This document shows, piece after piece, positions 2,576-50,591 of a DNA stretch of 64,000 nucleotides (position 1 is its first letter; every line of letters starts with the position of its first letter). The stretch lies in NCBI RefSeq assembly GCF_014204985.1, contig NZ_JACHMP010000001.1, forward strand, positions 5,332,001 through 5,396,000. The letters are read 5' to 3'. This DNA is from Streptosporangium becharense. GTDB lineage: Bacteria; Actinomycetota; Actinomycetes; Streptosporangiales; Streptosporangiaceae. A program made the translations under genes and the position numbers. The notes under the pieces were generated by a model that made no database searches, was not told the DNA's origin, and worked only from the letters and a program-made list of their open reading frames with translations.

Positions 2576-3532
2576 ATGGCGGCGGCGAACCTTGTGCTGC
2601 GGAACGTTCGGCGACGGATCAACAAGTGCCTGCGTGAGGGGTCGGACACGCTGGATCTGTCGAGTCTGGGGCTGGTCCGGGTGCCCGAGGAGGTGACCGA
2701 GATTCCCGGCCTGCGGATGCTGAAACTGGCATGCAACCACCTGACCGAGCTGCCCCGGTTCCTGACCGACCTGCCCGAGCTGACCGAACTGAACCTCGCG
2801 GACAACCGCACGCTGACCGAACTGCCCGAGTGGATCGGCGAGCTGACCGGGCTCACCAGCCTTGACGCCTTGGCGACCAGGCTGCACCGCCTTCCCGACT
2901 CGATGGGGGAGCTCACCGGACTCAGGAAACTCAACCTGAGCATCATCCGTGATGACTCGGAGGGGGTGCCCGAGTGGATCGGCAACTTCACCCGGCTCAC
3001 CGAGCTCAAGGTGTGGTATGCCGGGTCGGCCTGCTTCTTCCCGGCGTCGATGGCCAACCTCACCGCCCTCACCAGGCTCAACCTGAGGGCGGCCGGCAAG
3101 CCTGCCGACTTCCCTTCGTGGCTGGGCGAGCTGACCGCTCTGACGCACCTCGGCCTGGCGGGCGGTCACCTGACCGCCCTGCCCGAGTCGATCGGGAACC
3201 TCACCGCCCTCACCTCCCTCAGCCTGTGGGACAACCAGGTGACCGAGCTGCCGGAGTCGATGGGGAACCTCACCGCCCTCACCTCCCTCCACCTGGACAA
3301 GAACCGGCTGACCGCCCTACCGGAGTCGATGCGGGCTCTCACCTCCCTGACCAGGCTCGGGCTGCGGGAAAACCGGTTGGCCGAGCTGCCGGAGTGGCTG
3401 GGTGAGCTGACCGAGCTCACCGAGCTGCGCCTGGACGGCAACGACCCCCGCCCCCGGGTTCCGGCCTCGCTGCGCGCGCTCGCGCGGACCGACCCCGACT
3501 GGCGCCGCTTCCTGGCCAGCCGCTACCGCTGA
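2576..3532 (+). CDS. Leucine-rich repeat protein, tandem copy 2
   Basis: A 318-residue paralog of the gene at 1246 with the same layout: a basic helix (RNVRRRINKCLREG), then TLDLSSLGLVRVP, about ten LRRs and the same C-terminal cap (DPDWRRFLASRYR). The start ATG at 2576 is preceded by a purine-rich GGGGGA about 8 nt upstream. Divergence from copy 1 is concentrated in the middle repeats, the likely ligand-binding face, while the termini are nearly identical. That pattern fits duplication followed by change of specificity or gene conversion of the ends (inference). Confidence 0.85.
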   Translation: MAAANLVLRNVRRRINKCLREGSDTLDLSSLGLVRVPEEVTEIPGLRMLKLACNHLTELPRFLTDLPELTELNLADNRTLTELPEWIGELTGLTSLDALATRLHRLPDSMGELTGLRKLNLSIIRDDSEGVPEWIGNFTRLTELKVWYAGSACFFPASMANLTALTRLNLRAAGKPADFPSWLGELTALTHLGLAGGHLTALPESIGNLTALTSLSLWDNQVTELPESMGNLTALTSLHLDKNRLTALPESMRALTSLTRLGLRENRLAELPEWLGELTELTELRLDGNDPRPRVPASLRALARTDPDWRRFLASRYR

Positions 3533-22937: not shown

Positions 22938-23333
22938 ATGGCGACAGTCACCTTCCGGGACGAGACCGCGACGGGAAGACCGATAGAGGAGTTCACCCTC
23001 CCCGACCTGCCGGAGAGCATCTCCGCCCGAGAACTGGTGCGGCTTCGCGTCCGTGAGGAGGTCGCCCGCCACAACGCCGACCCCTCTTCCCGGTTCACCG
23101 GCCTGGTCCGCCCGTCGGACGCCGAGGCTGAGCTGAACGGCTACCGGATGGGCGGTGCCAGGCGGCGGATCGACTGGGAGAAGCAGGCGGACGTCGCGGA
23201 GCGGGCGTTCCAGCGCAACGGTTTCGTGCTGCTGATCGGGGAGCGGCAGATCGAGGACCTGTCCGAGGTGATCGACCTGACCGGTGACCCGGTGGTGTCG
23301 TTCATCAAGCTCGTCCCGCTGGTCGGGGGCTGA
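22938..23333 (+). CDS. Small conserved-looking protein upstream of DUF4132 gene
   Basis: 131 residues from the ATG at 22938, with GGAG 7 nt upstream. Beta-rich start (MATVTFRDETATGRPIEEF), then a helix with ESISARELVRLRVREEVARH, and a basic middle. The end (GERQIEDLSEVIDLTGD, then VVSFIKLVPLVGG) suggests a compact domain. The stop is one base before the DUF4132 start, so the two are co-translated and probably physically linked partners. I do not recognise the family. Confidence 0.65.
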   Translation: MATVTFRDETATGRPIEEFTLPDLPESISARELVRLRVREEVARHNADPSSRFTGLVRPSDAEAELNGYRMGGARRRIDWEKQADVAERAFQRNGFVLLIGERQIEDLSEVIDLTGDPVVSFIKLVPLVGG

Positions 23334-23334
23334 C

Positions 23335-29000: not shown

Positions 29001-29451
29001 CACGGTGCGGTTGTGGGACCCGTTCACCGGGGAACCCGCCTGCGTGCCCATCCGCACCGGCTACGAGCCGGGGAGCAGGCCCGGCACGGTGGTCTTCCAC
29101 CCCGACGGCCATCTGCTCGCCACCGCCACCGCCACCGTTACCGGCGACGCCGACGAGGTGCGGCTGTGGGACCCGTTCACCGGTGAACGGGTCGGCACCC
29201 TCGCCACCGACCGGCAGTGCGGCGGCGTCGAGGCGGCGGTCTTCCATCCCGGCGGCCGGTTGCTCGCCACCGGCCACGGTGACGGAACGATACGGTTCTG
29301 GGACCTGCCCACCGGCGAACCCGTCGGCGCTCCCCTCATCGGGCATCCCGGTGCCGTCACGTCGCTGGCCTTCCATCCCGCCGGGCATCTGCTGGCCGCC
29401 GCCGACGCCGCCGGGACGGCCCGGCTCTGGATCGAGACGCCGCACGGGTGA
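26026..29451 (+). CDS. LRR - HTH-like - WD40 fusion protein
   Basis: 1141 residues from a GTG at 26026 behind GAGGAGAGAG. Residues about 34-335 are thirteen near-perfect 23-residue LRRs (LPESLGGLTALTDLDLGGNR type). The centre (about 350-430) holds LRELHREAGRPSLHDLAVRI and VHTVLHCRILPSWPQVEQVV, like the HTH domain found in actinobacterial signalling proteins. Residues about 495-1141 carry fourteen WD-type units, each with a VRLWDPVTGEP-like core, enough for two seven-bladed propellers. An Asp/Gly/Glu-rich insert (DGIEGDGEDGAGEDGDGTGS) splits one blade. No NTPase or catalytic domain is present. It is probably a large scaffold or sensor, and it is related in its LRR style to the proteins at 1246 and 2576. 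Confidence 0.85.
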   Translation: MAGSGNGRATADARIAECLREGSTELGLGGLGLETLPDSIGDLTHLEKLDLRENRLTTLPESLGNLTALERLDLQDNRLVALPESLGNLDRLDTLYLHGNRLTALPESLGGLRSLAWLYLYRNLLTTLPDSVGDLTRLKRLELWDNRLTALPESLGGLGSLHRLELHDNRLTALPESLGGLTNLSTLQLRNNRLTVLPGSLGDLARLAKLDLRDNQITALPESLGGLTALTDLDLGGNRLAALPESLGGLTALIDLNLNDNRLTELPESVGNLAALIRLYLGGNRLTTLPGSMGRLTGLEKLDLRDNEITALPESLGGLPRLTWLNVQGNRLTALPERRRDLSPAQAALRALSTWLRELHREAGRPSLHDLAVRINERLGEDAVGPATVHTVLHCRILPSWPQVEQVVRVLGGQAEAVRPVWEAAYEVSPERAVAEGLYRPVGGDPVTGRGDRSRDPALWLWDPAIGRYEVPDGPRVPDAGGHEYFPGRHIRHCGAVYAIAYHPDDRLLATGNDEGEVWLWDPVTGEPVTAALTGHGGFVTGLAFHPHGHLLASADGWTIRLWNPVTGDPAGAVPVLYEGGVRRIAFDHEGHLLAAACSDGTVRVWDPATGALAADPFACPRKEVWALAFRPGGRVLVTAGVDGTDGTATDGIEGDGEDGAGEDGDGTGSAGAVVRLHDLDTGESVTRPLTGQAGEIVLATLNPDATWLAAAVNDPLRPHQVRTVRLWDVGSGEPVADPFESPCEEIWAMAFHPDGRLLAVGGKHWRYLNYRLQLWDPVTGSHQALYSGLYDQPDHVRTVAFHPGGHVLATGSHFDTDVQQWTLVAAPVGAPLVHHGESVRGLAFHPDGHLLAAVIDSRTVWLWDPATGAPVTVPPVGRAEAVAFHPGGRVLATAYSDETGGTVRLSDLVTGEPIGAPLAGHVPHVSVRIAFQPGGRLLATTDLIWADHIDIVWLWDVDTGELVDGLPMSRGIRKITFHPGGRWLAVTEDDGTVRLWDPFTGEPACVPIRTGYEPGSRPGTVVFHPDGHLLATATATVTGDADEVRLWDPFTGERVGTLATDRQCGGVEAAVFHPGGRLLATGHGDGTIRFWDLPTGEPVGAPLIGHPGAVTSLAFHPAGHLLAAADAAGTARLWIETPHG

Positions 29452-36626: not shown

Positions 36627-39600
36627 CTACGCCTTCGGTGCCCATTCGTTGGCGAAGGTCTCCATCTGCTTGATGACGAGGTCCACGGCCTGGCGCTCCT
36701 CCTCCGGCGGGTAGTCGAACTTCGCCAGCAGCCGCCGGACGCGGGTGCGCAGCTTGGCCCGTACGGGCTCCCGGGAGAGCCAGTCGACGCTCAGGTTCTT
36801 GCGGATGTCCGCGACCAGCGCGCGGGCGATCTCGGCGAGGGTGTCGTCGCCCATCAGGGCCCGGGCCATACCGTGCTGGGCCACGGCGTCGTAGAAGGCG
36901 AGTTCGGCGTGGTTGAGCGGGGGGTCGAAGCGCTCGCCGCGCCGGGCGTCCGCGGAGACCTCCCGGGCCATGGCGACCAGCTCGGCGATCAGCTCTGCAC
37001 TGCTGAGCTGCTGCCGCATATACCGGATCATCAGGTCTTCGAGGCGCTCGGTGAAGCTCTCCCGGCGGACGATGTTGTGCCGGGTCACCTCACGCATCTT
37101 CTGCTGGATCAACCGGCGCAGGGCCTCGGCGGCCAGGTGCGGCGTCTCCGACTCCTGGAGTCTGCGCAGGTGCTCATCGTTGAGCCGGGTGATGTCGAGC
37201 AGCCCGATGCCGGCCTCGGCGTACAGGTCGGTGATCTCCTCGGCGTCGACGACGGAGGCGGCCAGCTGCGACAGGTAGAGGTTGACCTCGTCGGCCACCG
37301 GTTTGCCGGCGGCCTCGCGGTCTGCGACGTCCAGCTTCACCATCCGGGCCCGCACCTCGACGAAGAAGGCGATGTCTCGGCGCCACGTCTTCAGGTCCTC
37401 GAAGCGCTCGGAGATCTCCCGGCTCATCGCGCACAGCCGGTGGAAGCGCTCCAGGCGGGTGGCGCTCTCCTTGAAACGGGTGGAGAGCGGCTTGGCGTCG
37501 CCCTCCACCTGGTTGCCGGGTGTGCGCGGGTTGCGTAGATACTCGGTCACTCGGCGCAGGGTGTGCAGGCGCGGCTCGGGGTGAGAGGTGTCGGTGAGCA
37601 ACGCCCGCCAGTCGACACCGGCGAGCTGGCCGCAGATGGTCGTGTACTCGTTGCGGACCTCGGTGATGGCGCGGTCGATGTCCTTGCCCAGAGTCTGGTC
37701 CTGCTGGTCGCTCGGGGTGTACTCCGCCAGGGCCTTCTTCAGGTTCTCGGTGAGCGGGGCGTAGCCGACGAGCAGGCCGTCCTGCTTGCCGCGGAAACGG
37801 CGGTTGACCCGGGCCAGGGCCTGCATCAGGTTCGCACCCCGCACGGGCCGGTCCATGTAGAGGGTGTGGATCGGCGGCGCGTCGTAGCCGGTGAGCAGCA
37901 TCGAGTGGACGATCAACAGCTCCAGCTCGTCGTCGGGGTCCTTGGCGCGGGCCTGGACGGCCCTGTGCTGGGAGGGACGCAGGGCGTGCTCGCGCAGGTG
38001 CTTTGGATCGCTGGGATCACCGTGGAAGACGATCTTCATCTTGCCCTTGTCGACCGCCTCGTCGGCCCAGTCGGGCCGCAGGTCGGCGAGGGCGTCGTAG
38101 AGCCTGACGCAGACCTCCCGGCTGACGCAGACGACCATCGCCTTGCCCGGCCCGCCGATCTGCGGACGCATCAGCTCCGACCGCTTCTCCCAGTGGGCGA
38201 CCAGGTCCTCGGCGAGGGTCTTGATCCGGTCGGGTGCGCCGTAGACGTTGGTCATCTGGGCGGCGTACTGCATGGCCCGGCGACGCTCGGCGTCGTCCAG
38301 GTTGGCGGTCAGCGCGTCGGCCTTCTGGTCGATGGTCTCCGGGTCTACGTCCGGAGGCAGCGAGACCGGGATGAGCCGCGGCTCGTGGTAGACCCGGACG
38401 GTCGCCTCGTCGTCCACGGCCCGCTTGAGGTCGTAGACGTCGATGTACTCACCGAACACCTCGCGCGTGTTGACGTCGGCCCTGGAGATGGGCGTGCCGG
38501 TGAAGGCGATGAGCGTGGCGTGCGGCAGGGCGTCGCGCAGGTGGCGGGCGTAGCCGTCGAGGCTGTCGTAGTGGCTGCGGTGCGCCTCGTCCACGATGAC
38601 CAGGATGTTGCGCCGATCGGACAGGAGCGGGTGGTCGATGCCCGCCTCCTTCTCCTGCTTGGTACGGCCGAACTTCTGCAGGGTGGTGAAGACGATCCCG
38701 CCGGTGCGGCGGCGGGTCAGCTCGTCGCGGAGCTCCTCGCGGCTCTGGACCTGGACCGGGGTCTGCCCCAGGAGGACCTGGCTGTCGGTGAAGGTGCCGA
38801 ACAGCTGGTCGTCGAGGTCGTTGCGGTCGGTGATGACGACGATCGTCGGGTTGTTGAGCGCGGGCTGCCGGGAGGCCAGCGCGCTGACGCACACCATCTC
38901 CTCCGACTTGCCGGAACCCTGGGTGTGCCAGACCACGCCGGCCTGCCCGTTGCTCCGCGACGCCTCGACGATGGAGGCGACGGCCCTGGTGACGGCGTGA
39001 TACTGGTGCGGCTTGGCGATGCGCTTGCCGGTCGGCGTGAAGTTGACGAAGTTCTCGGCGAGGGTCAGGAAGCGCCGCTGCCCGAACAGGCCGTGCAGGG
39101 CGAGGAACATCGCCTCCTCGCCGTCGTAGCCGAGTGCGCCGGTGTCGACGCGCTCGCCGTTCTCGACAATGTTCCACGGTGCGAAGTGCTCGTACGGAGT
39201 GAACGGCGTGCCGTACTTGGCGGTGACGCCGTCGGAGACCATGCAGAGCACGTTGTAGCGGAACGCGAGCGGGAACTCGTCGAGGTAGGTGCCGAGCTGG
39301 GCGTGCGCGTCCTTGAGGGTGGCGTGCTCGTCGGCGGCGCTCTTCAGCTCGATGACGGCCAACGGCAGCCCGTTGACGTAGAGGACGACGTCGAAGCGGC
39401 GCCTATGCTCGCCGTCGATGACGGTGACCTGGTTGACGGCGCGGTAGGTGTTCCTGTTCGGGTCGCGCAGGTCGACGAGGCGGACGGTCGGGGTGTGCTC
39501 CGCGCCGAACTCGTCGGTGTAGGTGACGGCCCGGATGCCGGAGATCAGATGCTCGTGGGCGAGCCGGTTCTCGGCGAACGCCTCACGGGACTTGGGGGTG

Positions 39601-39836
39601 GTGGCGACCCCCAGGGCCTCGTGCACGGCGGCGGGCGGCAACTCGGGGTTGAGCCGCTCGATCGCGGCCCGCAGCTCGTCGTGGAGGACCAGGTCGTCCC
39701 ACGTGACACGGCCACCGGAGCCGGGTGCGATCCCCTTGCCCTCTCCCGGCTCCCAGCTGAGCTTCCCGAGCTCCTCCAGGGCGAGCCTCTCCCAGACGGC
39801 CTCGGTCATCTTGCCGTTGTGCATGCCGCCGGTCAT
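36627..39836 (-). CDS. hsdR: Type I restriction enzyme R subunit
   Basis: 1069 residues from an ATG at 39836 that overlaps the hsdS stop (ATGA). The N-terminal nuclease domain shows the PD-(D/E)xK core LAVIELKSAADEH (about residue 160). The helicase motor has Walker A GSGKSEEM, DEAH box VIVDEAHRSH and FTGTPIS. Motif VI-type residues ALARVNRRFRGK are present. The helical C-terminus (EEERQAVDLVIKQMETFANEW) is the usual HsdM-contact region. All key residues look intact, so it is predicted active. It is the last gene of a four-gene operon. Confidence 0.92.
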   Translation of the reverse strand: MTGGMHNGKMTEAVWERLALEELGKLSWEPGEGKGIAPGSGGRVTWDDLVLHDELRAAIERLNPELPPAAVHEALGVATTPKSREAFAENRLAHEHLISGIRAVTYTDEFGAEHTPTVRLVDLRDPNRNTYRAVNQVTVIDGEHRRRFDVVLYVNGLPLAVIELKSAADEHATLKDAHAQLGTYLDEFPLAFRYNVLCMVSDGVTAKYGTPFTPYEHFAPWNIVENGERVDTGALGYDGEEAMFLALHGLFGQRRFLTLAENFVNFTPTGKRIAKPHQYHAVTRAVASIVEASRSNGQAGVVWHTQGSGKSEEMVCVSALASRQPALNNPTIVVITDRNDLDDQLFGTFTDSQVLLGQTPVQVQSREELRDELTRRRTGGIVFTTLQKFGRTKQEKEAGIDHPLLSDRRNILVIVDEAHRSHYDSLDGYARHLRDALPHATLIAFTGTPISRADVNTREVFGEYIDVYDLKRAVDDEATVRVYHEPRLIPVSLPPDVDPETIDQKADALTANLDDAERRRAMQYAAQMTNVYGAPDRIKTLAEDLVAHWEKRSELMRPQIGGPGKAMVVCVSREVCVRLYDALADLRPDWADEAVDKGKMKIVFHGDPSDPKHLREHALRPSQHRAVQARAKDPDDELELLIVHSMLLTGYDAPPIHTLYMDRPVRGANLMQALARVNRRFRGKQDGLLVGYAPLTENLKKALAEYTPSDQQDQTLGKDIDRAITEVRNEYTTICGQLAGVDWRALLTDTSHPEPRLHTLRRVTEYLRNPRTPGNQVEGDAKPLSTRFKESATRLERFHRLCAMSREISERFEDLKTWRRDIAFFVEVRARMVKLDVADREAAGKPVADEVNLYLSQLAASVVDAEEITDLYAEAGIGLLDITRLNDEHLRRLQESETPHLAAEALRRLIQQKMREVTRHNIVRRESFTERLEDLMIRYMRQQLSSAELIAELVAMAREVSADARRGERFDPPLNHAELAFYDAVAQHGMARALMGDDTLAEIARALVADIRKNLSVDWLSREPVRAKLRTRVRRLLAKFDYPPEEERQAVDLVIKQMETFANEWAPKA

Positions 39837-40988
39837 AAGGCGTCCTCGACGATCCGCTCCGCATCCCGGACGCGCAGCTTGCCGGACATGAGCTGGGGGA
39901 GGAGGGTGTCGCGCAGGGCGGCGAGGGTGCGAGACTCCTGCTCCACCCGTGTTGCTTGAGTCATAAGTGGTCGTACGCGTTCGGACACCTCAGCCGCCGC
40001 AGCCGGTTCCAAGACCTTGATGAGCTGCTTATGTGCAGCATCTCGATTCAACCCGGGCACAGCTGAGTCGCCCACGAGTGCGGGAAGGTTTGCGGTCTCC
40101 AGTATGAGGAATGCAACTTCAGGAGATATGAACTTTGCGTTGATATCCACGAAGAAGGCTGTGTCAATCACCCAGCAAGGCTTGGGTGACCAGGAAACCC
40201 AGCCAGCATTTGCTCCCTTTCTTCCGACCACAGGAGTCGGACCGGATGTCAGTGGCGTGTCATGCCAACCTACCTGCCCGGTGCATCCGTAGACGGGTGT
40301 AGCACCTTCCCGGCGTTCTGCCTCTCGAAGTGCTTTACCGTACTTAAGGGATACGAAATTCCCTAGTTCGGAAGAGGTGCTTGCATCTGCAGAAAAATTC
40401 CTATAGATGGAACGAGACAACTCAAGCGCTGTCAATGTGATGCGCTCGTTGACCGCGATCTTGTCGTCCAGTGCCCCGAGCGCTGCTGCGATAGATTTCT
40501 GGATAGTTAACGGAGGGCTTGGAACCCGAAGCGACTTGATTGTCGCTACCGGCTGCCCCAGGCCGGGGACGCCAACGGTTGATACGTTCTGGAGGAGCTC
40601 ATGCTGGCCGTCCGGGGATGAGAACCAGTAGTAGTAGAACTCCGGAAGGGACCGTTTAGGGTCAAGACGGGCTTTAACCTGGCTTGTTGAAAGGACGTAC
40701 CGATGGTATCGGGGTGTGCGAGGGATCATTGATATCTGTCCTACTGTGCCCCGATGAGTGAAGACCAAATCGCCGGGTGCTAAGTTTGCTCCAGGTATCT
40801 GATCAGCTTTCTCGCCGCTGATGAACACGAATTCATCATCAAGGAACACGCCTTTGCTGAGATTGACTCCGCGGACTACTGGAATCCCTTGGGGGATGTA
40901 GTCCTCTTTGGTGATCGCAGACCCGTAAGGCTTTGAGAATGCGCTTTTCTCTGCCGCTGCGAGTTCTTCGAATCGGACCGTAGGCCAC

Positions 40989-40996
<8 letters not shown>
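39833..40996 (-). CDS. hsdS: Type I restriction-modification specificity subunit
   Basis: 387 residues. The ATG at 40996 is preferred (GGGGAGG 4 nt upstream, overlapping the hsdM end) over a TTG one codon earlier. It has two target-recognition domains separated by the conserved helical spacer (TIQKSIAAALGALDDKIAVN) and a similar helix at the C-terminus (ESRTLAALRDTLLPQLMSGK). The two halves give the usual pseudo-symmetry. Most of the gene (about 39960-40985) is markedly less GC-rich than hsdM and hsdR, as expected when recognition domains are swapped horizontally. It determines the target sequence for the complex. Confidence 0.9.
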
Positions 40997-42623
<1,627 letters not shown>

Positions 42624-42702
42624 CGTTCCTCTTTCCTCTGCGAGGGGGACGTGTTTCTTCTGCGAGGGGCGTACGGGGATCGTGGCGGTAGATGGTGGTG
42701 TA

Positions 42703-44850
42703 TCAGGAATCGTCGATGGTCAGAGTGCCGTCGGCGAAACCCGCGACGGTCAGGCGGCGGATCTCCTCCAGGGCGTCGTCCTGCGCGCGCAGCAGTTCCC
42801 GCCGTCGCTCGACCTCGGCGAGCAGGGCGTCGAGCCGCGCCGCGTCCGCCGGGTCGAGGTCGGGGAGGACGAAGTCCTCGATCCGCCGCGCGGGCCGTAC
42901 CGCGCCGCGGCTGCGGCCGGTGTTCCTGGCCGCGCTCAGCAGGGCGGCCAGGACGCGGGGTGTGAGCGGACGCTCGGAGGCGGGGGCGACGCGCAGGACG
43001 CGGGCGGGAAACGCCACCACGCACGTGCCCTCGTGGTCGACGGTGAAGCCGAGCCGGGGCGTGAGGGTGTAGACGAGGTCACCGGGCTCGGTGAACGCGG
43101 CGTACTCGTAGCCGGCGAGCACTGCGCGGTCGATGCGCCGCGCGCCGGCCGGGAGGTCACCGATGACCTCCTCGGGGCCGAGCACCGGGTGGTGGCCCTC
43201 GGCCGTCAGGTGCCGCGCGTCGAGGCGGTGCCCACTGACCTTCGTGACGCGTCCCGCCGCGATGAGCGCGCCGACCGTGGTGAGCCCCGGTCGCTCGCCG
43301 GTGCGCAGTACGACGCCGCCGCGCAGGCGGCCGTACTCGCCGGTGTATCGCCGGGCGTGCTCGTCGGCCTGCTCCAGCCGTCCCTCAGCCTCGGCGATCA
43401 GCGCGGGCCGCTCGGTCACCGTGCGGGCCAGGACGTGGGAGACGGGCGGCTCCATCGGGACGAGCGGGCCGCCGAACTCCGCGTCGAGCCGCGCGACGGG
43501 GACGATGCGGCCGTAGCGGGGGTCGTGCCCGTCGGAGCGGCGCCCCTCCGCGCGCCAGAGCAGGACGTCCTCGGCCAGCCGTGCCCGGACGCGCTCGTCC
43601 AGTGCTTCGGCACCGAGGTCGGCGAGGAGGACGAAGCCGCGCACGGCCGTGATCGGGTCGCGGGTGAGCGTCCACAACGCGCAGCGGTAGCCGGGGCGGT
43701 ACGGGGTCACGCCGCCGGGCAGGGTGACGACGGACTCCACGATGCCGCTGCGCAGGAGAGTGGAGCGGAACCGGGCCTCCTGCGTGTCGGGCAGTGCGCC
43801 GACGAGGGCGTCGGCGGGACCGAGCACGACGGCGGTGCGGCCCGGGCCGAGCAGGTCGCAGACCCGCTCGACGGCCTCCAGCGCGGCCAGCTTCGACCGG
43901 GTCTCCCCGGCCCGGTAGGGGAGGCGGGTGACGATGAGATCCAGGTCGGCCAGTCGTTCCTCCAGGTCGGCGCCGACACGCACGTCGAGGTCGAGTTCGT
44001 CGACGCCGCCGAGCAGGAGCCGGCGGCGGGTGAGGCGGGCGAGCCACTCGTCGGGCTCCGCGGCCAGCGCGCGGATCATCGTGGGATCCTCCACCGCGCG
44101 GACGAGCGCCGCCAGGAGGTCTCCCGCTCCGGCGTGGGGATCGGCGAGGGTGACCGTGCCGTGCCGCTCCACCCCGGATCGCGGGTCGGCGAGCCGGACG
44201 AGCAGCCGGAGGAGCTCGGGTGTGAGGGCGTCGGCGGTGAGTTCGGCCAGGCCGAGGCGGGCCCGTGCCGCCAGGAGCTGCTCGTACGCGCCTGCCGGGG
44301 TGTAGGCCGCCTCGACCAGGTCTTCGGCGAGACGGGCCAGGGGTACGGCCGAGCCGTCGGTGGCTCGCAGCTCCCGCAGGACGAGCTCGTCCTCGGCGTC
44401 CATCCGCTCGGCGCGGCGCCGGAGGGCGGCCCACGTCTCGTCCGGGTCCAGGTGCGCGTCTCCGCGCGGGTCGTCCGAGGCGCCGGGGAGCAGCGGCTTC
44501 TCGTCGAGGTGACGCAGGCAGAGCAGGCTGCCGACGATCTCGACGAGCCGGCGCGGGCCGAACCGGTCCGCGTGGGCGGCGATGGAGTGGAGGGCGGGCT
44601 CGGCCCGGAGGCGGGCCGGGTCGGTGTTGCCCAGGCCCGAGGTGATCAGCCAGTCGACCACCTCCCGGCTGTGGAACCGCGGCCGTCCGGCGCTTCCGGG
44701 CACCGCGGCGGGGAAGTCGTCGTACCGGCGGCGCCAGGTGGAGACCACGGGCCGCCTGACCTGGGCCATCGCGGCTATCTCGGCCATGGAGACCAGGGGA
44801 GCCGGGCAGAGGTCGGGCGTTCCGGGAGGCGTGGACCGGAGGTGTGACAT
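42703..44850 (-). CDS. Methylase-like protein with HTH and degenerate catalytic motif
   Basis: 715 residues from the ATG at 44850, with GGAGAG 9 nt upstream. The N-terminus has an HTH of the MerR/excisionase type (MAEIAAMAQVRRPVVSTWRR and FHSREVVDWL). The centre resembles an HsdM-type N6-adenine methylase fold with a motif I-like ADPHAGAGDLL, but the catalytic NPPY/F position reads IVTRLPYRA, with no Asn, so methylation is unlikely. The C-terminal third resembles an HsdS-like recognition domain (TTVGALIAAGRVTKVSGHRL, then helical DALLAEVERRRELLRAQ). It may be a DNA-binding regulator or sensor derived from a fused M-S protein. It is the first gene of the hsdMSR operon and divergent from the DndB-like gene. 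Confidence 0.7.
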   Translation of the reverse strand: MSHLRSTPPGTPDLCPAPLVSMAEIAAMAQVRRPVVSTWRRRYDDFPAAVPGSAGRPRFHSREVVDWLITSGLGNTDPARLRAEPALHSIAAHADRFGPRRLVEIVGSLLCLRHLDEKPLLPGASDDPRGDAHLDPDETWAALRRRAERMDAEDELVLRELRATDGSAVPLARLAEDLVEAAYTPAGAYEQLLAARARLGLAELTADALTPELLRLLVRLADPRSGVERHGTVTLADPHAGAGDLLAALVRAVEDPTMIRALAAEPDEWLARLTRRRLLLGGVDELDLDVRVGADLEERLADLDLIVTRLPYRAGETRSKLAALEAVERVCDLLGPGRTAVVLGPADALVGALPDTQEARFRSTLLRSGIVESVVTLPGGVTPYRPGYRCALWTLTRDPITAVRGFVLLADLGAEALDERVRARLAEDVLLWRAEGRRSDGHDPRYGRIVPVARLDAEFGGPLVPMEPPVSHVLARTVTERPALIAEAEGRLEQADEHARRYTGEYGRLRGGVVLRTGERPGLTTVGALIAAGRVTKVSGHRLDARHLTAEGHHPVLGPEEVIGDLPAGARRIDRAVLAGYEYAAFTEPGDLVYTLTPRLGFTVDHEGTCVVAFPARVLRVAPASERPLTPRVLAALLSAARNTGRSRGAVRPARRIEDFVLPDLDPADAARLDALLAEVERRRELLRAQDDALEEIRRLTVAGFADGTLTIDDS

Positions 44851-44935
44851 CCGCCGGCTCTCCTTCCTCGGAATCGCCGCCCAATCGCGGTGCACCGCAC
44901 TCTACGCACACTCAGGCATCGACATTGAAGAAATC

Positions 44936-44955
44936 TTGATAACCCGGGTTATCAA
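44936..44955. promoter_or_regulatory. Perfect 20-bp palindrome, probable operator
   Basis: TTGATAACCCGGGTTATCAA is a perfect palindrome centred in the 227-bp spacer between the divergent methylase-like and DndB-like genes. Its AT-rich ends stand out in this GC-rich DNA. It is a strong candidate operator controlling both directions, possibly bound by the HTH of the methylase-like protein. Confidence 0.7.
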
Positions 44956-45077
44956 CTTTGCGATTGCTTGGGAGAGTGAAAGAGGTCACTCTCGACTCGC
45001 AACATCACAGCAGTGCGCCGGGCCTCGCGAATCCCCGCCGTCCCGGCCGTTCCGTGTCGAGAAGGAGCCCCCGGACC

Positions 45078-46304
45078 ATGACTCTGACCATGCCGACCAC
45101 GACCGTCGAAGGAATCCAGCTGACCGTGACCCCGTTCCGCCCGGACGCGGTGATCGGGACGATGGGGCTGTCGACGCTGCTCCAGCTCGTGCCCTCCCCG
45201 AAGACGGAGGAGGACAAGCGGGCACTGAAGTACGCCCCCGGTGCTCTGCGCCGGCACGCCGAGGTCCGCAGTCTCGTGCAGCGGATGCTGAAGTCCACTC
45301 AGAAGGGGCGGAACGTCACCTCGTACGCCTCCTACATCGCCTCTGCCGTGAACGGGGAGTACGGCGCCGGCTGGTCCACCCCGCCGATCACGTTATGGCT
45401 GGACGGGCAGCTCGGCGCGGTCGGCGACGAGCTGATCCCCGGCAGTGGCATCCGAACCGTCACGATGACTCCGGGCACGCCCGTGGTGGCCATCGACGGG
45501 GAGACCCAGGTCGCCGCCTGGCACGAGCTGTACGACGACCCGGAGCGTTTCGGGACCACGTACGACCGGCTGGGCAGGGTGCGGGTGCCGTTCGAGCTGT
45601 ACTTCGGGCTGAGCGTCGAGGACGCCCGGCAGATCTTCTACGACCGCAACGTCGAGGGGGTGCCGGTCGCCAAGAACCTGGCGATGTCCATGGACCAGCG
45701 CGACATCGGCACTCAGCTCGCCCACCGTGTCGCCGGTGCGGTCAAGGTCGACCACGACGGGAAGATCATGCCGTTCGCCAAGCTGGTGCAGTCGCGCAAG
45801 CGCCAGCTCACCAAGACCGATCCCGAGCTCGTCACCCTCTCCGCCCTGCGAGTGCTGGTGATCACCGCGCTGCACGGGCGGGCCGGTCTCGCCCTGTCCT
45901 CCACGACCGTGCACGAGGGCGACCTGCCCGACGGGGTCACCGCGGAGCAGTCCGAGCGCCGGCTCGTCCCCCTGCTGTCGGCGCTGGTCGCGCGGCTCTA
46001 CCCCCACTTCGCCGCACGTGGTGCCGTCTCCGCGCCGGCCGTCCTCGCCGGGATCGGCATCGCCGCGCACCAGGCCACCGGCTGGGCCACCTCGGGTCGG
46101 CCGCTGACCGAGGACGAGCTGACCGAGCTGCTGGACTCGGTGCGCTGGGAGCGTGAGGCCCGCTACTGGGACGGTGTCGCCGCCAGTGCGAACGCCCAGG
46201 GGACTCTCAACTTCGGCGGCGGGGCCAAGGACTCCGGCGGACGCGTCGCCGACGCCCTGCTGCATCCCGACACCGAGCACGGTCGCAAGATTCGCGGCTG
46301 GTGA
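45078..46304 (+). CDS. DndB-like protein (DGQHR-type fold)
   Basis: 408 residues from the ATG at 45078, with AAGGAG about 10 nt upstream. The core AIDGETQVAAW corresponds to the DGQHR signature of DndB/DGQHR proteins, here altered to DGETQ. It is followed by FYDRNVEGVPVAKNLAMSMD, the typical 'asparagine and lysine' stretch of DndB. DndB is a transcriptional regulator of phosphorothioate modification clusters. No dndC, dndD or dndE gene occurs here, so this is an orphan. It is divergent from the methylase-like gene across a palindrome. It may report on or regulate the RM operon (inference). Confidence 0.75.
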   Translation: MTLTMPTTTVEGIQLTVTPFRPDAVIGTMGLSTLLQLVPSPKTEEDKRALKYAPGALRRHAEVRSLVQRMLKSTQKGRNVTSYASYIASAVNGEYGAGWSTPPITLWLDGQLGAVGDELIPGSGIRTVTMTPGTPVVAIDGETQVAAWHELYDDPERFGTTYDRLGRVRVPFELYFGLSVEDARQIFYDRNVEGVPVAKNLAMSMDQRDIGTQLAHRVAGAVKVDHDGKIMPFAKLVQSRKRQLTKTDPELVTLSALRVLVITALHGRAGLALSSTTVHEGDLPDGVTAEQSERRLVPLLSALVARLYPHFAARGAVSAPAVLAGIGIAAHQATGWATSGRPLTEDELTELLDSVRWEREARYWDGVAASANAQGTLNFGGGAKDSGGRVADALLHPDTEHGRKIRGW

Positions 46305-46395: not shown

Positions 46396-47112
46396 TCAGG
46401 AGGACACCTCACCTGATCGCAGCAACGGCGGGATCAGCAGCGACGCGGCCCCCCGCCGGTAGAGGGCCGCGGGCCTGCCGGTTTCGGAGGAGCGGCGCTC
46501 ACCCGTGGGGTTGAGAAACCCCTCCGTCCGTGTCACCTTCCTGCGGAAATTGCTGGGGTCGAGGCTGAAGCCCCACACGGCCTCATAGATGCGGCGCAGG
46601 TCGCCGACGGTGAAAGGCTCGGGGCAGAACGCCGCGGCCACCGTCGTGTGCTCAAGCTGCGATCTCGCCCGTTCCAGCCCGTCACGCAGTATCGCGGCAT
46701 GGTCGAAGGCGAGTGACGTGTCGTCGGCGAGAGCCGAGGAGACCGGTTCCCAGTGTGCCGCCGCGGCATCCGTACCCGCGACGGGCAGCGGCAGATCGGG
46801 GCCGAGTGCGAGATAGGCCACCGTGATGACTCTGCCCCGTGGATCGCGGTCCGGGTCGCTGTAGGCGCGCAACTGCTCCAGATGCAGTGTGCGGCCGTCA
46901 AGCCCGGTCTCCTCACTCAACTCCCGCAGGGCGGCCTCGTCCAGGGTCTCCCCGTCGCGGATGAACCCCCCCGGCAACGCCGGCTGTCCCAGGTACGGCT
47001 GGTTGCCGCGTTCGATCAGCAAGACCTGTAGCCGGCTCCGCCGGACAGTGAAGATCACTAGATCGACCGTCACGGTGACCGACGCTCGGCTCCGGCCGGA
47101 TCTTTCCATCAC
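46396..47112 (-). CDS. Nudix hydrolase-HTH regulator (NrtR-like)
   Basis: 238 residues. The N-terminal Nudix domain has an intact box GGFIRDGETLDEAALRELSE, then ETGL. The C-terminal about 80 residues form a winged helix (FTVGDLRRIYEAVWGFSLDP, NFRRKVTR), the NrtR/ADP-ribose-sensing architecture. There is no Shine-Dalgarno site, but a TAAAGT -10 lies 6 nt before the GTG at 47112, so the transcript may be leaderless; the ATG at 47109 is the next codon. It is divergent from the operon at 47203-50591, with an inverted repeat overlapping both promoters. It probably represses itself and that operon in response to a nucleotide such as ADP-ribose (inference). Confidence 0.85.
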   Translation of the reverse strand: MMERSGRSRASVTVTVDLVIFTVRRSRLQVLLIERGNQPYLGQPALPGGFIRDGETLDEAALRELSEETGLDGRTLHLEQLRAYSDPDRDPRGRVITVAYLALGPDLPLPVAGTDAAAAHWEPVSSALADDTSLAFDHAAILRDGLERARSQLEHTTVAAAFCPEPFTVGDLRRIYEAVWGFSLDPSNFRRKVTRTEGFLNPTGERRSSETGRPAALYRRGAASLLIPPLLRSGEVSS

Positions 47113-47125
47113 GTGAACACTTTAA

Positions 47126-47181
47126 CTAAAGGTCACCTTGACTCAAACCGTCCGGCGACTTATGGTCAAGTGGACCTAAAG
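47126..47181. promoter_or_regulatory. Inverted repeat overlapping divergent promoters
   Basis: CTAAAGGTCACCTTGAC (47126-47142) and GTCAAGTGGACCTAAAG (47165-47181) are inverted copies matching at 13 of 17 positions. On the plus strand TTGACT (47138-47143) and TATGGT (47161-47166) with a 17-nt spacer form a promoter, and both elements lie inside the repeat arms. This is a probable Nudix-regulator operator. Confidence 0.6.
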
Positions 47182-47202: not shown

Positions 47203-48942
47203 ATGGCCCGATCCGAGGCAACACGAGGCGAAGGGGAACACCGCGAGTCCCTGAGGCAGGACATGGCCACCCGGCACCTCTGCGCGGGTGTGTACCTCGA
47301 CCCCGCCTTCCGGCGCATCGTCCTCCGTCAGGTGCACAACGACACGAAACGCATGGTCGCCCCGTCCTACGGATTCGATCTCGTTCCGGTCGTCAGGCAC
47401 GCCTGGAAGGCGTGGGCCCTGGAGACGGGCCAGCACGTGTGCGTTCTGGCGGTGTTCGTGACCGGCTTCTGGGTCAACCCGCCGGCCGCTCTCACCGTCG
47501 TCAGCGGGATCGGACTGTGGTGCCTGTCCCGCCTGGTGATCAGGAGTGCCCGGGTGGTGCTCCCGCTCCGAGCCAAAAAGGTGGTGGACAGGTGGTTGTG
47601 GCGGACGCGGTGGCGAAGCGAGGTGGACAAGTTACGGGAACAGGAACGTCTTCTCCGCCTCAGTGGCATGGGGTGCGGTGTCCTCATCGTGGCACCGCCG
47701 CTGCTGGCGGAGATCTCCCGGGTGCCGCTGGGTGAGATGGCGGCGACGGCGATGCTCCTCGCGTCGCTCGTCGTCCTCGCAGTGGCCGGAAGGGGTGCGG
47801 TTCATCAGCTGTGCCTCAACCGCATGTACAGGGCCGACTCGCTATCGCCGTCAAAGCTGACCAGGCGTGAGCAGGCGATCAACGATCAGCAGTTCCACCC
47901 CTATGTGGTGTATCGCAGACCTTCACCCAGGGAAACCGAGGAGAAGCCGGGGGAGCTTGATTTCGATCTGCTGGACAGCGAGACGAGCCCGTTCATAGGG
48001 AGCGGAAAACTCGTGCACCGCTGGCAACCCCCGCTCACCATCCAGCTTCTGAGCACCGAAAGGGCGGACGGCTCGATGGAGGAGCGCGAGCGGCTGGCCT
48101 CGCCGTTCAGGGCGTGCGAACTCGTGGCGCATCTGAAGAAGGCGATGGAGCCGATGGGGGACGTCAACGATCCGACCAGGCTGCGAGGTTTCGAGAGAAA
48201 CGATCGGCTCTACATCGCGGAGACCGACGTCCGGCCCGGCCCTGACTGGTTGCGGGAGCGACCCGGCCGATACGGCATCGACGAGGTGATCGACGACCCT
48301 CACGGAATCGTCCATCACTTCCTGGAGATCCGGGCGAGCGTCACCGGAGAGGTGGTGACCACGGTTTTCCTGCGGGTGAGCGTCAAAGGGCGGGCTCTCA
48401 GCCTCGATTTCGCCGCCTGCGCGCTGACCCGCACGCCCGTCGAGTATCACCTGCTCGACGCTTTCGGCGAGGACGGCGCGGGTGCGGTGCTGCGTTCCGC
48501 ACTGCGCGGACTGGTCAACCTCCCGGCTGAGCTGGCGGGGGTGCGATGTATGGCCGAGGCTCCCGTGCTTCTGGCCGGTGCCGTGAAAGCGCGGAAGAAC
48601 CGTCTGCTCGTCCGCCGCCGTGGAGCGGTCATCGGCGCTCAGTTGAGCGTCAGGGAGGAGAAGTCGACTCCCTGGAATCAGGCGCAGCTGGACAGGACCA
48701 CCATCTATGACTACATGAAGCTCATCGAGCAGCGGCTTCTGAAAGCGACCGAGGAATTCCTTAATTCAAAGAAAATCGACGTCTCGGCCTTCAATAAGAA
48801 GGCGACCAGCATCGTCAACATGGGTGTGCTCAACATGGGCGGAAAGATAGATATGAATCAGACGGCGGTCGGTGCCAAAGCGCATGTGCGCGTCGACGTC
48901 CGAGAGCCCGACGGAAACCACGGAGACTCACCGGCGGAATGA
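47203..48942 (+). CDS. Membrane protein with cytoplasmic domain, first gene of nucleosidase operon
   Basis: 579 residues from the ATG at 47203, with GGAGG 9 nt upstream; the open frame upstream overlaps the operator and is not used. About four membrane segments lie in residues 75-210 (including HVCVLAVFVTGFW, ALTVVSGIGLWCLSRLV, GVLIVAPPLLA and AATAMLLASLVVLAVAG). A large, presumably cytoplasmic domain follows, not recognised. Near the C-terminus MGGKIDMNQTAVGAKAHVRV resembles the N-terminus of the next protein (YGGSMEISQSAFGHGATVNV), suggesting a shared interaction element. It is in an operon with a nucleosidase-like protein and a membrane-anchored PLD-like protein. Confidence 0.7.
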   Translation: MARSEATRGEGEHRESLRQDMATRHLCAGVYLDPAFRRIVLRQVHNDTKRMVAPSYGFDLVPVVRHAWKAWALETGQHVCVLAVFVTGFWVNPPAALTVVSGIGLWCLSRLVIRSARVVLPLRAKKVVDRWLWRTRWRSEVDKLREQERLLRLSGMGCGVLIVAPPLLAEISRVPLGEMAATAMLLASLVVLAVAGRGAVHQLCLNRMYRADSLSPSKLTRREQAINDQQFHPYVVYRRPSPRETEEKPGELDFDLLDSETSPFIGSGKLVHRWQPPLTIQLLSTERADGSMEERERLASPFRACELVAHLKKAMEPMGDVNDPTRLRGFERNDRLYIAETDVRPGPDWLRERPGRYGIDEVIDDPHGIVHHFLEIRASVTGEVVTTVFLRVSVKGRALSLDFAACALTRTPVEYHLLDAFGEDGAGAVLRSALRGLVNLPAELAGVRCMAEAPVLLAGAVKARKNRLLVRRRGAVIGAQLSVREEKSTPWNQAQLDRTTIYDYMKLIEQRLLKATEEFLNSKKIDVSAFNKKATSIVNMGVLNMGGKIDMNQTAVGAKAHVRVDVREPDGNHGDSPAE

Positions 48943-48952
48943 GGAGGAAATC

Positions 48953-49852
48953 ATGAACGGTAACAGTGGCGTCGTGAGCTATGGAGGGTCCATGGAGATC
49001 AGCCAGTCCGCGTTCGGGCACGGCGCGACGGTCAACGTGTCCGCCGCCCGGGAGAAGGAAGCAGAAAAAGCAGAACACGCCAGACGCGCCGATGTCGGGG
49101 TGGTCACCATCCTTTCTGAGGAGGCCAGGGCGGTTCACAAGGCGCTCGGTCTGGAACGTGTCCGGAGCGGTGAGATTCCTTTCTTCGAGGGAACTGTGAG
49201 CGTCCGGGGCGTGGACGCGAGGGTCGCCGCGGTCCGTGCCCTGTCCCAGGGGCAGAGATCGACCGTGATGGCCTTCGAGAACCTCCGCCGGCACTACAAC
49301 CCCGCCGTCGTCGTCCTCGCCGGGATCGGCGGTGGCATCCACAGGGACGTCGCGATCGACGACGTCGTCGTGGCCACCCAGGTCGTCTACTACGACCTCC
49401 GTAAGGAAACCGCTGACGGGCGGCGACGCAGAGGAGACGAGCGGGAAACGCCAGCGGTGATCGGCCGTGCCGTCCAGTCCTTCTTCACCGATCACGGCGA
49501 GCCGGCCAAAGTCTCCACCGTCGGCACCGACGGTGTCATACGTGACTACCGGGTGCTCACCGGTCCGATCGGCTCCGGCGAAGCGGTGATCGCGGATGCG
49601 GAATCAGAGATCATCCGATACCTGAAGGGCTTCAATGACAAGATCCTCGCCGTGGACATGGAAGCCGGTGGTCTGACCCAGGCGTTCCACGAGCAGGACG
49701 GCCCCCAGGTCGTCCGCGGCTGGGTCGTCGTACGGGGCATCTCCGACGACGCCGACTGGGACAAGAACGACGCCCATCACGACACCGCCGCCTGGCATGC
49801 GGCGACTGTCCTGCGCAGCATCCTCCCCTATCTGGTGATCGGCAGGACCTGA
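48953..49852 (+). CDS. Phosphorylase-superfamily nucleosidase (predicted effector)
   Basis: 299 residues from the ATG at 48953 with AGGAGG 5 nt upstream. Residues 1-30 carry the motif YGGSMEISQSAFGHGATVNV, then an Ala/Glu linker. From about 45 on comes a purine nucleoside phosphorylase/MTA-SAH nucleosidase-type domain: DVGVVTILSEEARAV, VVVLAGIGGGIHRDVAIDDV, the substrate-binding AVDMEAGG and VVRGISDDAD. Enzymes of this superfamily cleave N-glycosidic bonds. In conflict systems they occur as effectors acting on nucleotides (family knowledge). The added N-terminal motif matches the preceding membrane protein. Confidence 0.8.
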   Translation: MNGNSGVVSYGGSMEISQSAFGHGATVNVSAAREKEAEKAEHARRADVGVVTILSEEARAVHKALGLERVRSGEIPFFEGTVSVRGVDARVAAVRALSQGQRSTVMAFENLRRHYNPAVVVLAGIGGGIHRDVAIDDVVVATQVVYYDLRKETADGRRRRGDERETPAVIGRAVQSFFTDHGEPAKVSTVGTDGVIRDYRVLTGPIGSGEAVIADAESEIIRYLKGFNDKILAVDMEAGGLTQAFHEQDGPQVVRGWVVVRGISDDADWDKNDAHHDTAAWHAATVLRSILPYLVIGRT

Positions 49853-49892
49853 CATCCCAGCTTCCCGTGGTCTTCGACGAAGGGGATGAGAC

Positions 49893-50591
49893 GTGGACGC
49901 GTTCGTGCTCGGCGTGGTGAGCTCTCTCCTCGCCACCGCCCTCACCGTCGCCGGGGGCTGGCTCTTCTCCATGCGTTCCCGCCAGTGGCCGGTCGCGTTG
50001 CTCTCCCGGTTGACGGGGCTGGGAGTCCGTCGTGTGTTCGCCCGGCAGCACCTGGCCTCTTCGGAACTGGCCGTCGAACTGGCACGTGCGCGCTGGGTGC
50101 GTGTTCTCGCCGGGCGTGGGAACGAGCTGACGCGCGATGGGTTCGCCGCCGTCTGGGAGGCCGCGGGCAGGCGCCTGGAGTTCGTGCAGGTCCTCCTGCC
50201 CGACGCGGACCTCGGCCCTGGCTCATGGCTCTCCATGCGGGAGGAGGAGATGCGCCGGGTGGATCTGGGCTTCTCCTCCGGTCTGCTCGCCGAACAGGTG
50301 CGGGTCAACGCCGCCTATGTGAACGAGGTCGCCCGGCACCGTCACGCCGTCTCACTGCGGTTCTACGACCTGCCCAACATGCACCGCGTCATCATCACCG
50401 ACAAGGTCGCCTACCTCACCATCTACCGACAGACACAGCACGGCCGTAACTCGCCGTGTATGGTCGCGCGCCGTCCTGGGCTGATGTACGACTACGCACT
50501 ACTTCTCTTCAACACTGCCTGGGATCACAGTCGCCCGACAGGAGGGCCTGTGAATCCCGGCAGTGGAGATCTTCCGCCTTCTCAAGGATGA
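49893..50591 (+). CDS. Membrane-anchored protein, possibly PLD-like
   Basis: 232 residues from a GTG at 49893 behind AAGGGG. One N-terminal membrane segment (LGVVSSLLATALTVAGGWLF) precedes a cytoplasmic domain: WVRVLAGRGNELTRDGFAAV, LEFVQVLLPDADLGPGSWLS, then LRFYDLPNMHRVIITDKVAY. The His…Asp-Lys spacing is reminiscent of a degenerate phospholipase-D (HKD) motif. I do not see a second HKD copy, so activity is unproven. It is the third gene of the Nudix-regulated operon. It could be a membrane effector or a receptor partner for the nucleosidase. Confidence 0.6.
   Translation: MDAFVLGVVSSLLATALTVAGGWLFSMRSRQWPVALLSRLTGLGVRRVFARQHLASSELAVELARARWVRVLAGRGNELTRDGFAAVWEAAGRRLEFVQVLLPDADLGPGSWLSMREEEMRRVDLGFSSGLLAEQVRVNAAYVNEVARHRHAVSLRFYDLPNMHRVIITDKVAYLTIYRQTQHGRNSPCMVARRPGLMYDYALLLFNTAWDHSRPTGGPVNPGSGDLPPSQG

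What the first reader, a model, noticed from the sequence alone, without database searches (positions are those of the whole stretch)
47203..50591. Three-gene membrane protein, nucleosidase and PLD-like operon under a Nudix regulator
A four-helix membrane protein, a phosphorylase-superfamily nucleosidase with an extra N-terminal motif and a membrane-anchored PLD-like protein form one operon. It is controlled by a divergent Nudix-HTH protein of the ADP-ribose-sensing type. The set looks like a nucleotide-depleting or membrane-acting conflict system triggered by nucleotide signals. I do not recognise it as a named system.
Basis: inference. Interest (0 to 1): 0.7.

Follow-up and report, generated by a model that had tools for sequence, protein, structure and literature searches.

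The report
Receptor–nucleosidase pair sharing a motif
A bacterial operon encodes a membrane protein and a nucleotide-cutting enzyme whose tails carry the same short sequence, and the two tails change together from species to species, as one would expect of a prion-like on-switch that does without the usual immune receptor.

Summary
The operon (a four-TM protein here called ORF1, the PNP_UDP_1 nucleosidase NUC, a TM-anchored PLD-fold protein) lies beside a divergent NrtR-type Nudix/winged-helix gene. Of 77 named actinomycete loci found with ORF1, 75 have NUC at its 3' end, 71 NrtR and 46 the PLD gene. The promoter carries a conserved double operator (62 of 77). Matched pairs score 78.5 against 52.8 for mismatched (70 pairs, 0 of 20000 permutations), and some loci carry unrelated motifs that are nearly identical within the locus. 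No third protein of this genome carries the motif clearly, and none of its NB-ARC or NACHT places coincides with a motif hit. ORF1 paralogues are matched likewise to small proteins. This is the signature of amyloid-type (BASS/RHIM-like) signalosomes, but without an NLR. Best reading: an ADP-ribose-derepressed, membrane-anchored receptor templates a nucleosidase that depletes nucleotides. The matching is shown; amyloid formation, direction, substrate and anti-phage role are inferred.

The parts
46396..47112 (-). NrtR-type regulator: Nudix domain whose Nudix box fits the consensus (consensus recalled) plus NrtR winged-helix domain; likely repressor of the operon
   Evidence: Pfam PF00293 4.6e-19 and PF21906 1.7e-16; PDB relatives 2fml, 3gz5, AraR 5bs6; hit at E < 1e-40 in 71 of 77 named loci
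47127..47181 (+). Promoter with two operators: CTAAAGGTC-ACC-TTGACT ... TATGGTCA-AGTG-GACCTAAA; putative -35 TTGACT (47138-47143), 17-nt spacer, -10 TATGGT (47161-47166)
   Evidence: double site (slightly loosened pattern) upstream of ORF1 in 62 of 77 loci, 4 elsewhere in 1,237,662 flank bases; single exact match in the own genome, reversed-pattern control 0
47203..48942 (+). ORF1: membrane protein with four TM helices, an unassigned alpha/beta domain and a disordered C-terminal tail; proposed receptor/scaffold
   Evidence: hydropathy, AlphaFold2 model, no family match, no Foldseek PDB match at E <= 0.001
48811..48891 (+). ORF1 C-terminal signalling motif (residues 537-563, IVNMGVLNMGGKIDMNQTAVGAKAHVR)
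   Evidence: matched to NUC N-terminal motif, co-varying across loci; pLDDT below 50 from residue 547
48953..49852 (+). NUC: PNP_UDP_1 nucleosidase, proposed effector; residues E57, E237 and D265 invariant in 27 of 27
   Evidence: Pfam 1.9e-15; PADLOC PDC-M60C 1.7e-23 and 'Effector' PN-superfamily 1.4e-20; MTAN structures 1.2e-22 by profile; alignment A4
48962..49039 (+). NUC N-terminal signalling motif (residues 4-29, NSGVVSYGGSMEISQSAFGHGATVNV)
   Evidence: with the ORF1 copy the only clear motif site in the genome
49893..50591 (+). PLD-fold protein with N-terminal TM, lacking HxKx4D at its active-site place; accessory (profile hit at 46 of 77 named loci)
   Evidence: AlphaFold2 model pLDDT 84.6, Foldseek to F13, NucT, PLD3, signature test, counts

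Best explanation
A two-protein, NLR-free signalling system built on a homotypic, probably amyloid-type motif. An NrtR-like Nudix repressor holds the operon down through two operators over the -35 and -10, and likely lets go when ADP-ribose (a product of NAD+ breakdown during infection or damage) accumulates. ORF1 sits in the membrane with an alpha/beta domain and a disordered tail. On a stimulus ORF1 clusters, its tail motifs nucleate a cross-beta assembly, and this templates the matching motif at the N-terminus of NUC. Clustered NUC becomes an active nucleosidase that strips bases from a nucleotide or nucleoside pool (ATP or a related purine compound) and stops the hypha or cell. The PLD-fold protein is a probably non-catalytic accessory at the membrane. 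Shown: gene set, operator, motif pairing, conserved catalytic residues. Inferred: amyloid nature, direction from ORF1 to NUC, ADP-ribose as inducer, substrate, and role in defence or regulated cell death.
For: Motif pairing: 53 pairs, matched 76.4 v mismatched 55.2, 0 of 20000 permutations; still 69.0 v 46.6 at ORF1 identity below 48% (n 22); three control segment pairs differ by at most 1.2 points. Named loci (partly the same ones): 70 pairs, 78.5 v 52.8, 0 of 20000; at identity below 45% 69.7 v 42.9, n 15. Second architecture (NrtR | PLD-ORF1-NUC) with unrelated motifs that match within a locus (scores 131, 172, 146, 77). 35 ORF1 paralogues paired with the next small gene, chosen without looking at the motif: 65.5 v 39.0, 0 of 20000. 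Within-genome insulation: mean self 67.7, cross 33.6, both directions in 6 of 8 genomes. No third clear motif site in the genome: ORF1 1.9e-17 and NUC 2.6e-12, both of which are in the profile themselves, next hit 0.44. Disordered tail. Catalytic E57, E237, D265 invariant in 27 of 27. Precedent: fungal PUASM links PNP_UDP effectors to NLRs and forms amyloid (PMC9815663, passages). Operator.
Against: No amyloid assay or trained amyloid-motif predictor was available; 50 motif peptides match no Pfam amyloid family. In 3 of 70 pairs the two motifs are at least 85% identical as DNA, so some matching is recent copying, not selection alone. Two NUC systems in one Actinomadura alba strain are not insulated (self 63, 54; cross 52, 56). 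In closely related clusters the own partner is often not the top-ranked one (rank 1 in 18 and 17 of 70). One control segment pair was marginal (22.8 v 21.6, 244 of 5000 permutations as high). In a phylum-wide sample the 7 other ORF1 relatives had no NUC among their called genes, so the nucleosidase branch is only part of the family. No defence-island signal was established at other loci. Position (motif at the C-terminus of a membrane protein) also fits ORF1 being the executor.
Confidence: 0.52

Rival explanations
1. Same motif-pair signalling but in the opposite direction: NUC binds or turns over a nucleotide signal and, once oligomeric, templates ORF1, whose four TM helices permeabilise the membrane (ORF1 as a Bell/HeLo-like executor).
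For: In BASS signalosomes the membrane-active partner carries the motif at its C-terminus, as ORF1 does (PMC7889193, passages). ORF1 paralogues have small partners with no recognised enzyme domain in the three tested.
Against: NUC keeps all MTAN-type catalytic residues in 27 of 27, and PNP enzymes are known effectors; ORF1 has a large conserved soluble domain suited to sensing.
Confidence: 0.2
2. Static docking: the motifs form a stable heteromer or beta-structure that simply holds a stress-induced nucleosidase at the membrane, with no prion-like switch and possibly a metabolic (NAD/nucleoside repair) role.
For: Matching alone does not prove amyloid; NrtR regulators elsewhere control NAD metabolism (PMC6800001, passages).
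Against: Ordinary docking interfaces are not expected (inference) to drift to unrelated sequences while staying near-identical between the partners; patchy distribution; the motif is the same sequence on both sides and Gly/Asn/Ser-rich, as in amyloid motifs.
Confidence: 0.2
3. Ordinary purine salvage: NUC is an MTA/SAH-type nucleosidase with incidental neighbours.
For: Nearest solved structures by sequence are MTANs.
Against: NCBIfam MTAN equivalog cut-offs not met (63.1 v 169 and 39.9 v 73.8 bits); two other PNP_UDP_1 proteins score far higher in the genome (143.2 and 127.9 bits v 57.3); the strong ORF1 form is absent from most relatives searched; NUC is tied to ORF1 in 75 of 77 loci.
Confidence: 0.05

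Closest known systems
Bacterial amyloid signalling (BASS) NLR signalosomes (Dyrka et al. 2020 J Mol Biol; not held, known here only through passages of PMC7889193 and PMC8086366)
   Same: Adjacent genes share a short motif at protein termini; found in filamentous actinomycetes; motif families diverse between loci, matched within
   Different: No NLR found: the partner is a four-TM protein of no known family; the enzyme is a nucleosidase with an N-terminal motif; dedicated NrtR-type repressor and operators
Fungal PUASM (PNP_UDP-associated amyloid signalling motif; PMC9815663, passages)
   Same: A PNP_UDP effector linked to its partner by a shared motif
   Different: Fungal, partner is an NLR (NACHT), motif on the effector's C-terminus, pattern FxGxGxQxxGxGxF rather than the window's
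PNP-superfamily nucleosidase effectors of defence systems (PADLOC models; CBASS and Detocs recalled; ATP hydrolysis by PNP_UDP modules noted in PMC12881547, passages)
   Same: NUC matches PADLOC 'Effector' PN-superfamily (1.4e-20) and PDC-M60C (1.7e-23)
   Different: ORF1 and the PLD gene match no PADLOC model, so no known partner is in the operon; coupling is by a peptide motif
NrtR regulators of NAD+ metabolism (M. smegmatis NrtR, PMC6800001, passages)
   Same: Nudix plus winged-helix repressor next to its target, palindromic operators
   Different: Targets this operon, with an AGGTCA-type operator rather than GTTTTCGA-N7-TCGAAAAC; Nudix box intact here, degraded in MsNrtR
EAD/death-like adaptor conflict systems (PMC7159879, PMC8195603; passages)
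   Same: Adaptor modules couple regulators to effectors, PNPase-type among them, in multicellular bacteria
   Different: Those adaptors are folded domains, often within NTPase systems; here it is a short, fast-evolving peptide and no NTPase in the operon

Membership tests
NLR-associated amyloid signalosome (BASS) | neighbouring genes share a matched short terminal motif | tested here: met
NLR-associated amyloid signalosome (BASS) | one partner is an NLR/STAND protein bearing the motif | tested here: not met
   ORF1 has no Pfam match; motif profile finds no third clear site in the genome; none of 9 NB-ARC and 5 NACHT places (one shared) coincides with a motif hit, and 8 NB-ARC loci searched directly show no convincing match. 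Other STAND families were not searched by name
NLR-associated amyloid signalosome (BASS) | effector is a Bell domain with C-terminal motif | tested here: inconclusive
   ORF1 is a membrane protein with C-terminal motif, but of 579 aa and with an extra alpha/beta domain; no Bell profile was on hand
NLR-associated amyloid signalosome (BASS) | motif belongs to BASS1-10 or a curated amyloid family | tested here: inconclusive
   no Pfam amyloid family among the hits of 50 peptides (HMMER filters drop weak matches); BASS profiles not held
NLR-associated amyloid signalosome (BASS) | motif forms cross-beta fibres | not testable with these tools
   needs peptide assays
NrtR family | Nudix domain plus NrtR winged helix | tested here: met
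NrtR family | palindromic sites at a divergent target | tested here: met
   conserved paired sites between the genes; binding itself not tested
NrtR family | NCBIfam equivalog NF050029 cut-off (ADPR-responsive NtrR) | tested here: not met
   127.7 bits against 400
NrtR family | ADP-ribose releases DNA | not testable with these tools
   needs binding assay
MTA/SAH nucleosidase (equivalog) | curated score cut-off | tested here: not met
   63.1 against 169 bits, 39.9 against 73.8
PNP_UDP_1 superfamily | curated cut-off and MTAN-type catalytic residues | tested here: met
   57.3 against 25.1 bits; E57, E237, D265 invariant in 27 of 27, aligned to MTAN; catalytic roles recalled
Phospholipase D superfamily (catalytic) | HxKx4D at the active site | tested here: not met
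   regex found in 1 of 27, at residue 50, not at the active-site place; PLD fold itself met
PDC-M60 candidate defence system | companion M60 components | tested here: not met
   only NUC matches (PDC-M60C); ORF1 and the PLD gene have no PADLOC match at E <= 1

The most novel reading that the evidence does not exclude
A superfamily of membrane receptors of actinomycetes, each with a rapidly evolving prion-like tail matched to its own neighbouring effector (nucleosidase, DUF5955-like helical protein or a roughly 185-residue protein), forms the first NLR-free amyloid signalling network in bacteria; the nucleosidase branch is an ADP-ribose-derepressed suicide or defence switch.
Probability: 0.45. 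Interest if true: 0.9.

Novelty: new variant of a known kind. Interest (0 to 1): 0.76.

Why it matters
[quoted passage not shown]). These loci offer dozens of matched pairs, some with wholly different motifs, a defined promoter and an enzymatic read-out, so the question can be tested directly. It would also give PNP-type nucleosidases, a known class of immune effector, a new kind of switch.

Tried and rejected
Salvage operon: rejected as main reading. Catalytic PLD: rejected. An NLR upstream of the pair: looked for and not found in this genome; an NLR with a strongly diverged motif could be missed. Fold identity for ORF1: Foldseek gave nothing at E <= 0.001; many of the 50 rows listed are START/Bet v1-like ligand-binding folds (E 0.05-1, poor superposition), a lead only. 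Known amyloid families in Pfam: no hit; two chance families at E 0.05 and 0.15. Defence-island enrichment at other loci: of 100 neighbour proteins the top PADLOC model at E <= 1e-10 matched 4; 57 models matched at least one member, 25 shown; a control list was prepared but not run. Mobile carriage: 3 plasmid records with a match, one covering most of ORF1; no relative confirmed in viral contigs. Matching as a product of DNA copying: true for 3 of 70 pairs at nucleotide identity >= 0.85; in the other 67 same-residue codon identity is 0.54 against 0.48 expected. Literature searches for a prior description showed none among the papers listed (lists were cut); the library is open-licence PMC only, and Dyrka 2020 is not held. 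Rows dropped: one search used 70 of 77 loci (L141, L158, L164, L185 and L196 not parsed by the regex; L192 and L198 without a downstream NUC); one search used 35 of 36 paralogue loci (L070 had no small gene; three loci with NUC, L076, L077 and L112, set aside); one search used the genomes for which both kinds of locus had been fetched, leaving out G029 (L070 without partner); one search used 100 of the 145 neighbours listed.
Full report
WHAT IS THERE. The coordinates hold three co-directional genes, ORF1 (47203-48942), NUC (48953-49852) and a PLD-fold gene (49893-50591), with a divergent regulator at 46396-47112. ORF1 has no match in Pfam, PADLOC or NCBIfam. Hydropathy gives four TM helices, which also stand out in the alignment average beside one weaker peak in the beta region, and AlphaFold2 gives a confident model (pLDDT 87.0, pTM 0.84) in which residues 547-579 are below pLDDT 50. 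NUC is a PNP_UDP_1 protein from residue 48 onward. The third protein has one N-terminal TM and a PLD fold; the HxKx4D regex occurs in 1 of 27 relatives, at residue 50, and not at the active-site place in any. The regulator is Nudix plus NrtR winged helix.

CONSERVATION. In 297 genomes of the order, ORF1-like matches occur in 132, of which 52 have a best E-value below 1e-50 (my count from the table); in the window's genus the strong form is in 4 of 16. Of these 77, 75 carry a NUC hit at or directly after the ORF1 end (not L192 and L198), 71 an NrtR hit at E < 1e-40, 46 a PLD hit, and 46 all three. In the phylum at large the family is rare: 8 of 396 genomes at E <= 1e-30, the window's own included. 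At the 7 other loci the NUC profile hit none of the genes I called; 4 (L262, L263, L265, L267) have a small neighbouring gene with, by eye, a matching motif, L264 is cut by its contig end, and L266 and L268 show no partner.

THE SHARED MOTIF. Reading NUC N-termini and ORF1 C-termini side by side shows the same pattern, roughly N-x-G-[VI]-x-N-x-G-G-x(6)-S-A-[VI]-G-x(2)-A, in both. Whether the two copies change together was tested by aligning every ORF1 tail with every NUC head. First set: 37 loci, matched 69.3 v mismatched 55.6, 0 of 10000 permutations. Larger set: 53 pairs, 76.4 v 55.2, 0 of 20000, and the gap persists when ORF1s are thinned to below 48% identity (n 22, 69.0 v 46.6); other segments used as controls show little or nothing (22.8 v 21.6 with 244 of 5000 permutations as high; 21.7 v 21.5 with 1974; 24.8 v 24.9 with 2739). 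Named loci, partly overlapping the first sets: 70 pairs, 78.5 v 52.8, 0 of 20000. If the two motifs had evolved independently, a tail should resemble its own partner no more than another's, whatever the species tree; permutation counts are still not exact probabilities because loci are related. The own partner is top-ranked for 18 (by ORF1) and 17 (by NUC) of 70, since sister loci share motifs; thinned to below 50% identity (n 24) the median rank is 2 both ways.

UNRELATED MOTIFS, SAME RULE. Operator- and PLD-guided fetching found a second gene order, NrtR | PLD-ORF1-NUC, with distant ORF1 and NUC versions. Their motifs do not resemble the window's but match within each locus: L232 NHYGHQVHGDMHDGGGNQFGPNPT v NHYGHRVRGDMHDSGGNQFGPNPT (score 131), L233 (172), L235 (146), L236 (77); L233 and L235 are relatives of each other and also match crosswise (143, 156), while the other cross pairs score 26-56. 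Distant ORF1 paralogues, common in the family, are followed by a small gene: in 35 loci 28 partners have 110-139 aa, six 179-194 and one (L064, unmatched) 218. Three of the short ones were scanned: all hit DUF5955, one above its cut-off. Taking the next coding-like gene without looking at the motif, these 35 pairs score 65.5 matched v 39.0 mismatched, 0 of 20000, own partner first in 13. In 8 genomes that hold both an ORF1-NUC pair and an ORF1-small-protein pair, self scores average 67.7 and cross scores 33.6, self higher in both directions in 6 of 8; two NUC-type systems in Actinomadura alba are not insulated (self 63, 54; cross 52, 56). Matching is not simply recent DNA copying: only 3 of 70 pairs reach 85% nucleotide identity, though those look like homogenisation (five such pairs of the first set at 91-95%).

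NO NLR. A profile of the motif (50 peptides, the two window peptides among them) searched in six frames of the window's genome finds ORF1 (1.9e-17) and NUC (2.6e-12), as it must; the point is that the next hit has E 0.44. The genome has nine NB-ARC places and five NACHT places, one of them shared; none coincides with a motif hit by coordinates. Eight NB-ARC loci compared directly with the two window peptides give best local scores of 28-42; a small control (shuffled, one frame only, so easier to exceed) reached 32. The two highest, 42 and 38, are in short frames of 105 and 132 residues, not in the long NB-ARC frames.

REGULATION. The ORF1-NrtR intergenic regions carry CTAAAGGTC-N3-TTGACT and TTATGGTCA-N4-GACCTAAA, with 17 nt between TTGACT and TATGGT in the window (47138-47166), so the sites cover a sigma-70-like promoter. 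The double site, in a slightly loosened form, is present upstream of ORF1 in 62 of 77 loci and 4 times in 1,237,662 bases of flank; 10 loci with NrtR lack it in this form. In the own genome it occurs once, here. In 200 genomes of the order 36 sites were listed in 33 genomes (reversed-pattern control 1): by coordinates 26 precede an ORF1, 8 (two of them overlapping) a PLD gene, 1 a NUC-like gene (L231) and 1 another gene near a PNP-containing protein (L230). This points to a dedicated regulon. ADP-ribose as ligand is inferred from the NrtR family: M. smegmatis NrtR is released from DNA by ADP-ribose and has a degraded Nudix box (PMC6800001, passages), whereas the box here fits the Nudix consensus (consensus recalled).

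WHAT IT DOES. NUC keeps E57, E237 and D265 in 27 of 27, aligning with MTAN structures (catalytic roles recalled), but misses the MTAN equivalog cut-offs, and the genome has two other, better-scoring PNP_UDP_1 proteins. Its best PADLOC matches are PDC-M60C (1.7e-23) and the 'Effector' PN-superfamily model (1.4e-20). Fungal PNP_UDP effectors are coupled to NLRs by an amyloid motif, PUASM, reported to form fibres and, for the effector side, prions (PMC9815663, passages), and PNP_UDP modules are described as ATP-hydrolysing immune modules in several kingdoms (PMC12881547, passage). From this I infer that ORF1 and NUC work as receptor and effector coupled by a templating motif, with nucleotide depletion as output.

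CONTEXT. The window is defence-rich: DrmD/DrmMI DISARM-type genes at 4025-11574, type I restriction genes at 36627-42623, an N6-methylase-like and a DndB-like gene next to the regulator. At other loci no PADLOC model recurs (top 4 of 100 neighbours; no control run), so the defence role rests on the parts, the patchy distribution and the window's own neighbourhood.

VERDICT. The new fact is a matched, fast-diverging peptide pair that joins a membrane protein of unknown family to a nucleosidase, with no NLR found. It works like an amyloid signalosome; it is not filed as a member of the NLR-associated BASS class, because the NLR was looked for and not found.

Noticed in passing
4025-11574: DISARM-type pair: DrmD helicase and DrmMI methylase (PADLOC E = 0 for both); other DISARM genes were not looked for.
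   Followed up: partly
36627-46304: HsdR and HsdM followed by a 730-aa N6-methylase-like protein (weak mad2 match), then a DndB-like protein with a weak DGQHR match; no HsdS was recognised among the genes scanned.
   Followed up: no
1246-3532 and 26026-29451: Two LRR proteins with closely similar N-termini and an LRR-WD40 protein with a loosely similar one.
   Followed up: no
23284-25773: DUF4132 plus DUF7737 protein of unknown role.
   Followed up: no
L062-L075, L078-L081, L103-L121 (without L112): Widespread ORF1 paralogues, most followed by a small motif-matched protein (DUF5955-like or about 185 aa): a larger family with no name in the libraries searched.
   Followed up: partly
L198:6969-7916 and 7917-9674: Glycomyces locus in which a different PNP-type protein lies upstream of ORF1 and carries a Gly-rich, motif-like stretch at its C-terminus instead of its N-terminus.
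   Followed up: no
L230: Operator site before a gene of unknown family beside a 654-aa PNP-containing protein, hinting at a wider NrtR-controlled nucleosidase regulon.
   Followed up: no
L087, L088, L090, L092, L094: Motif copies in ORF1 and NUC 91-95% identical as DNA, suggesting recent gene conversion between the two genes.
   Followed up: partly
L011 (genome G190): ORF1 of a same-genus relative is in two pieces about 2 kb apart, so the system looks broken there.
   Followed up: no
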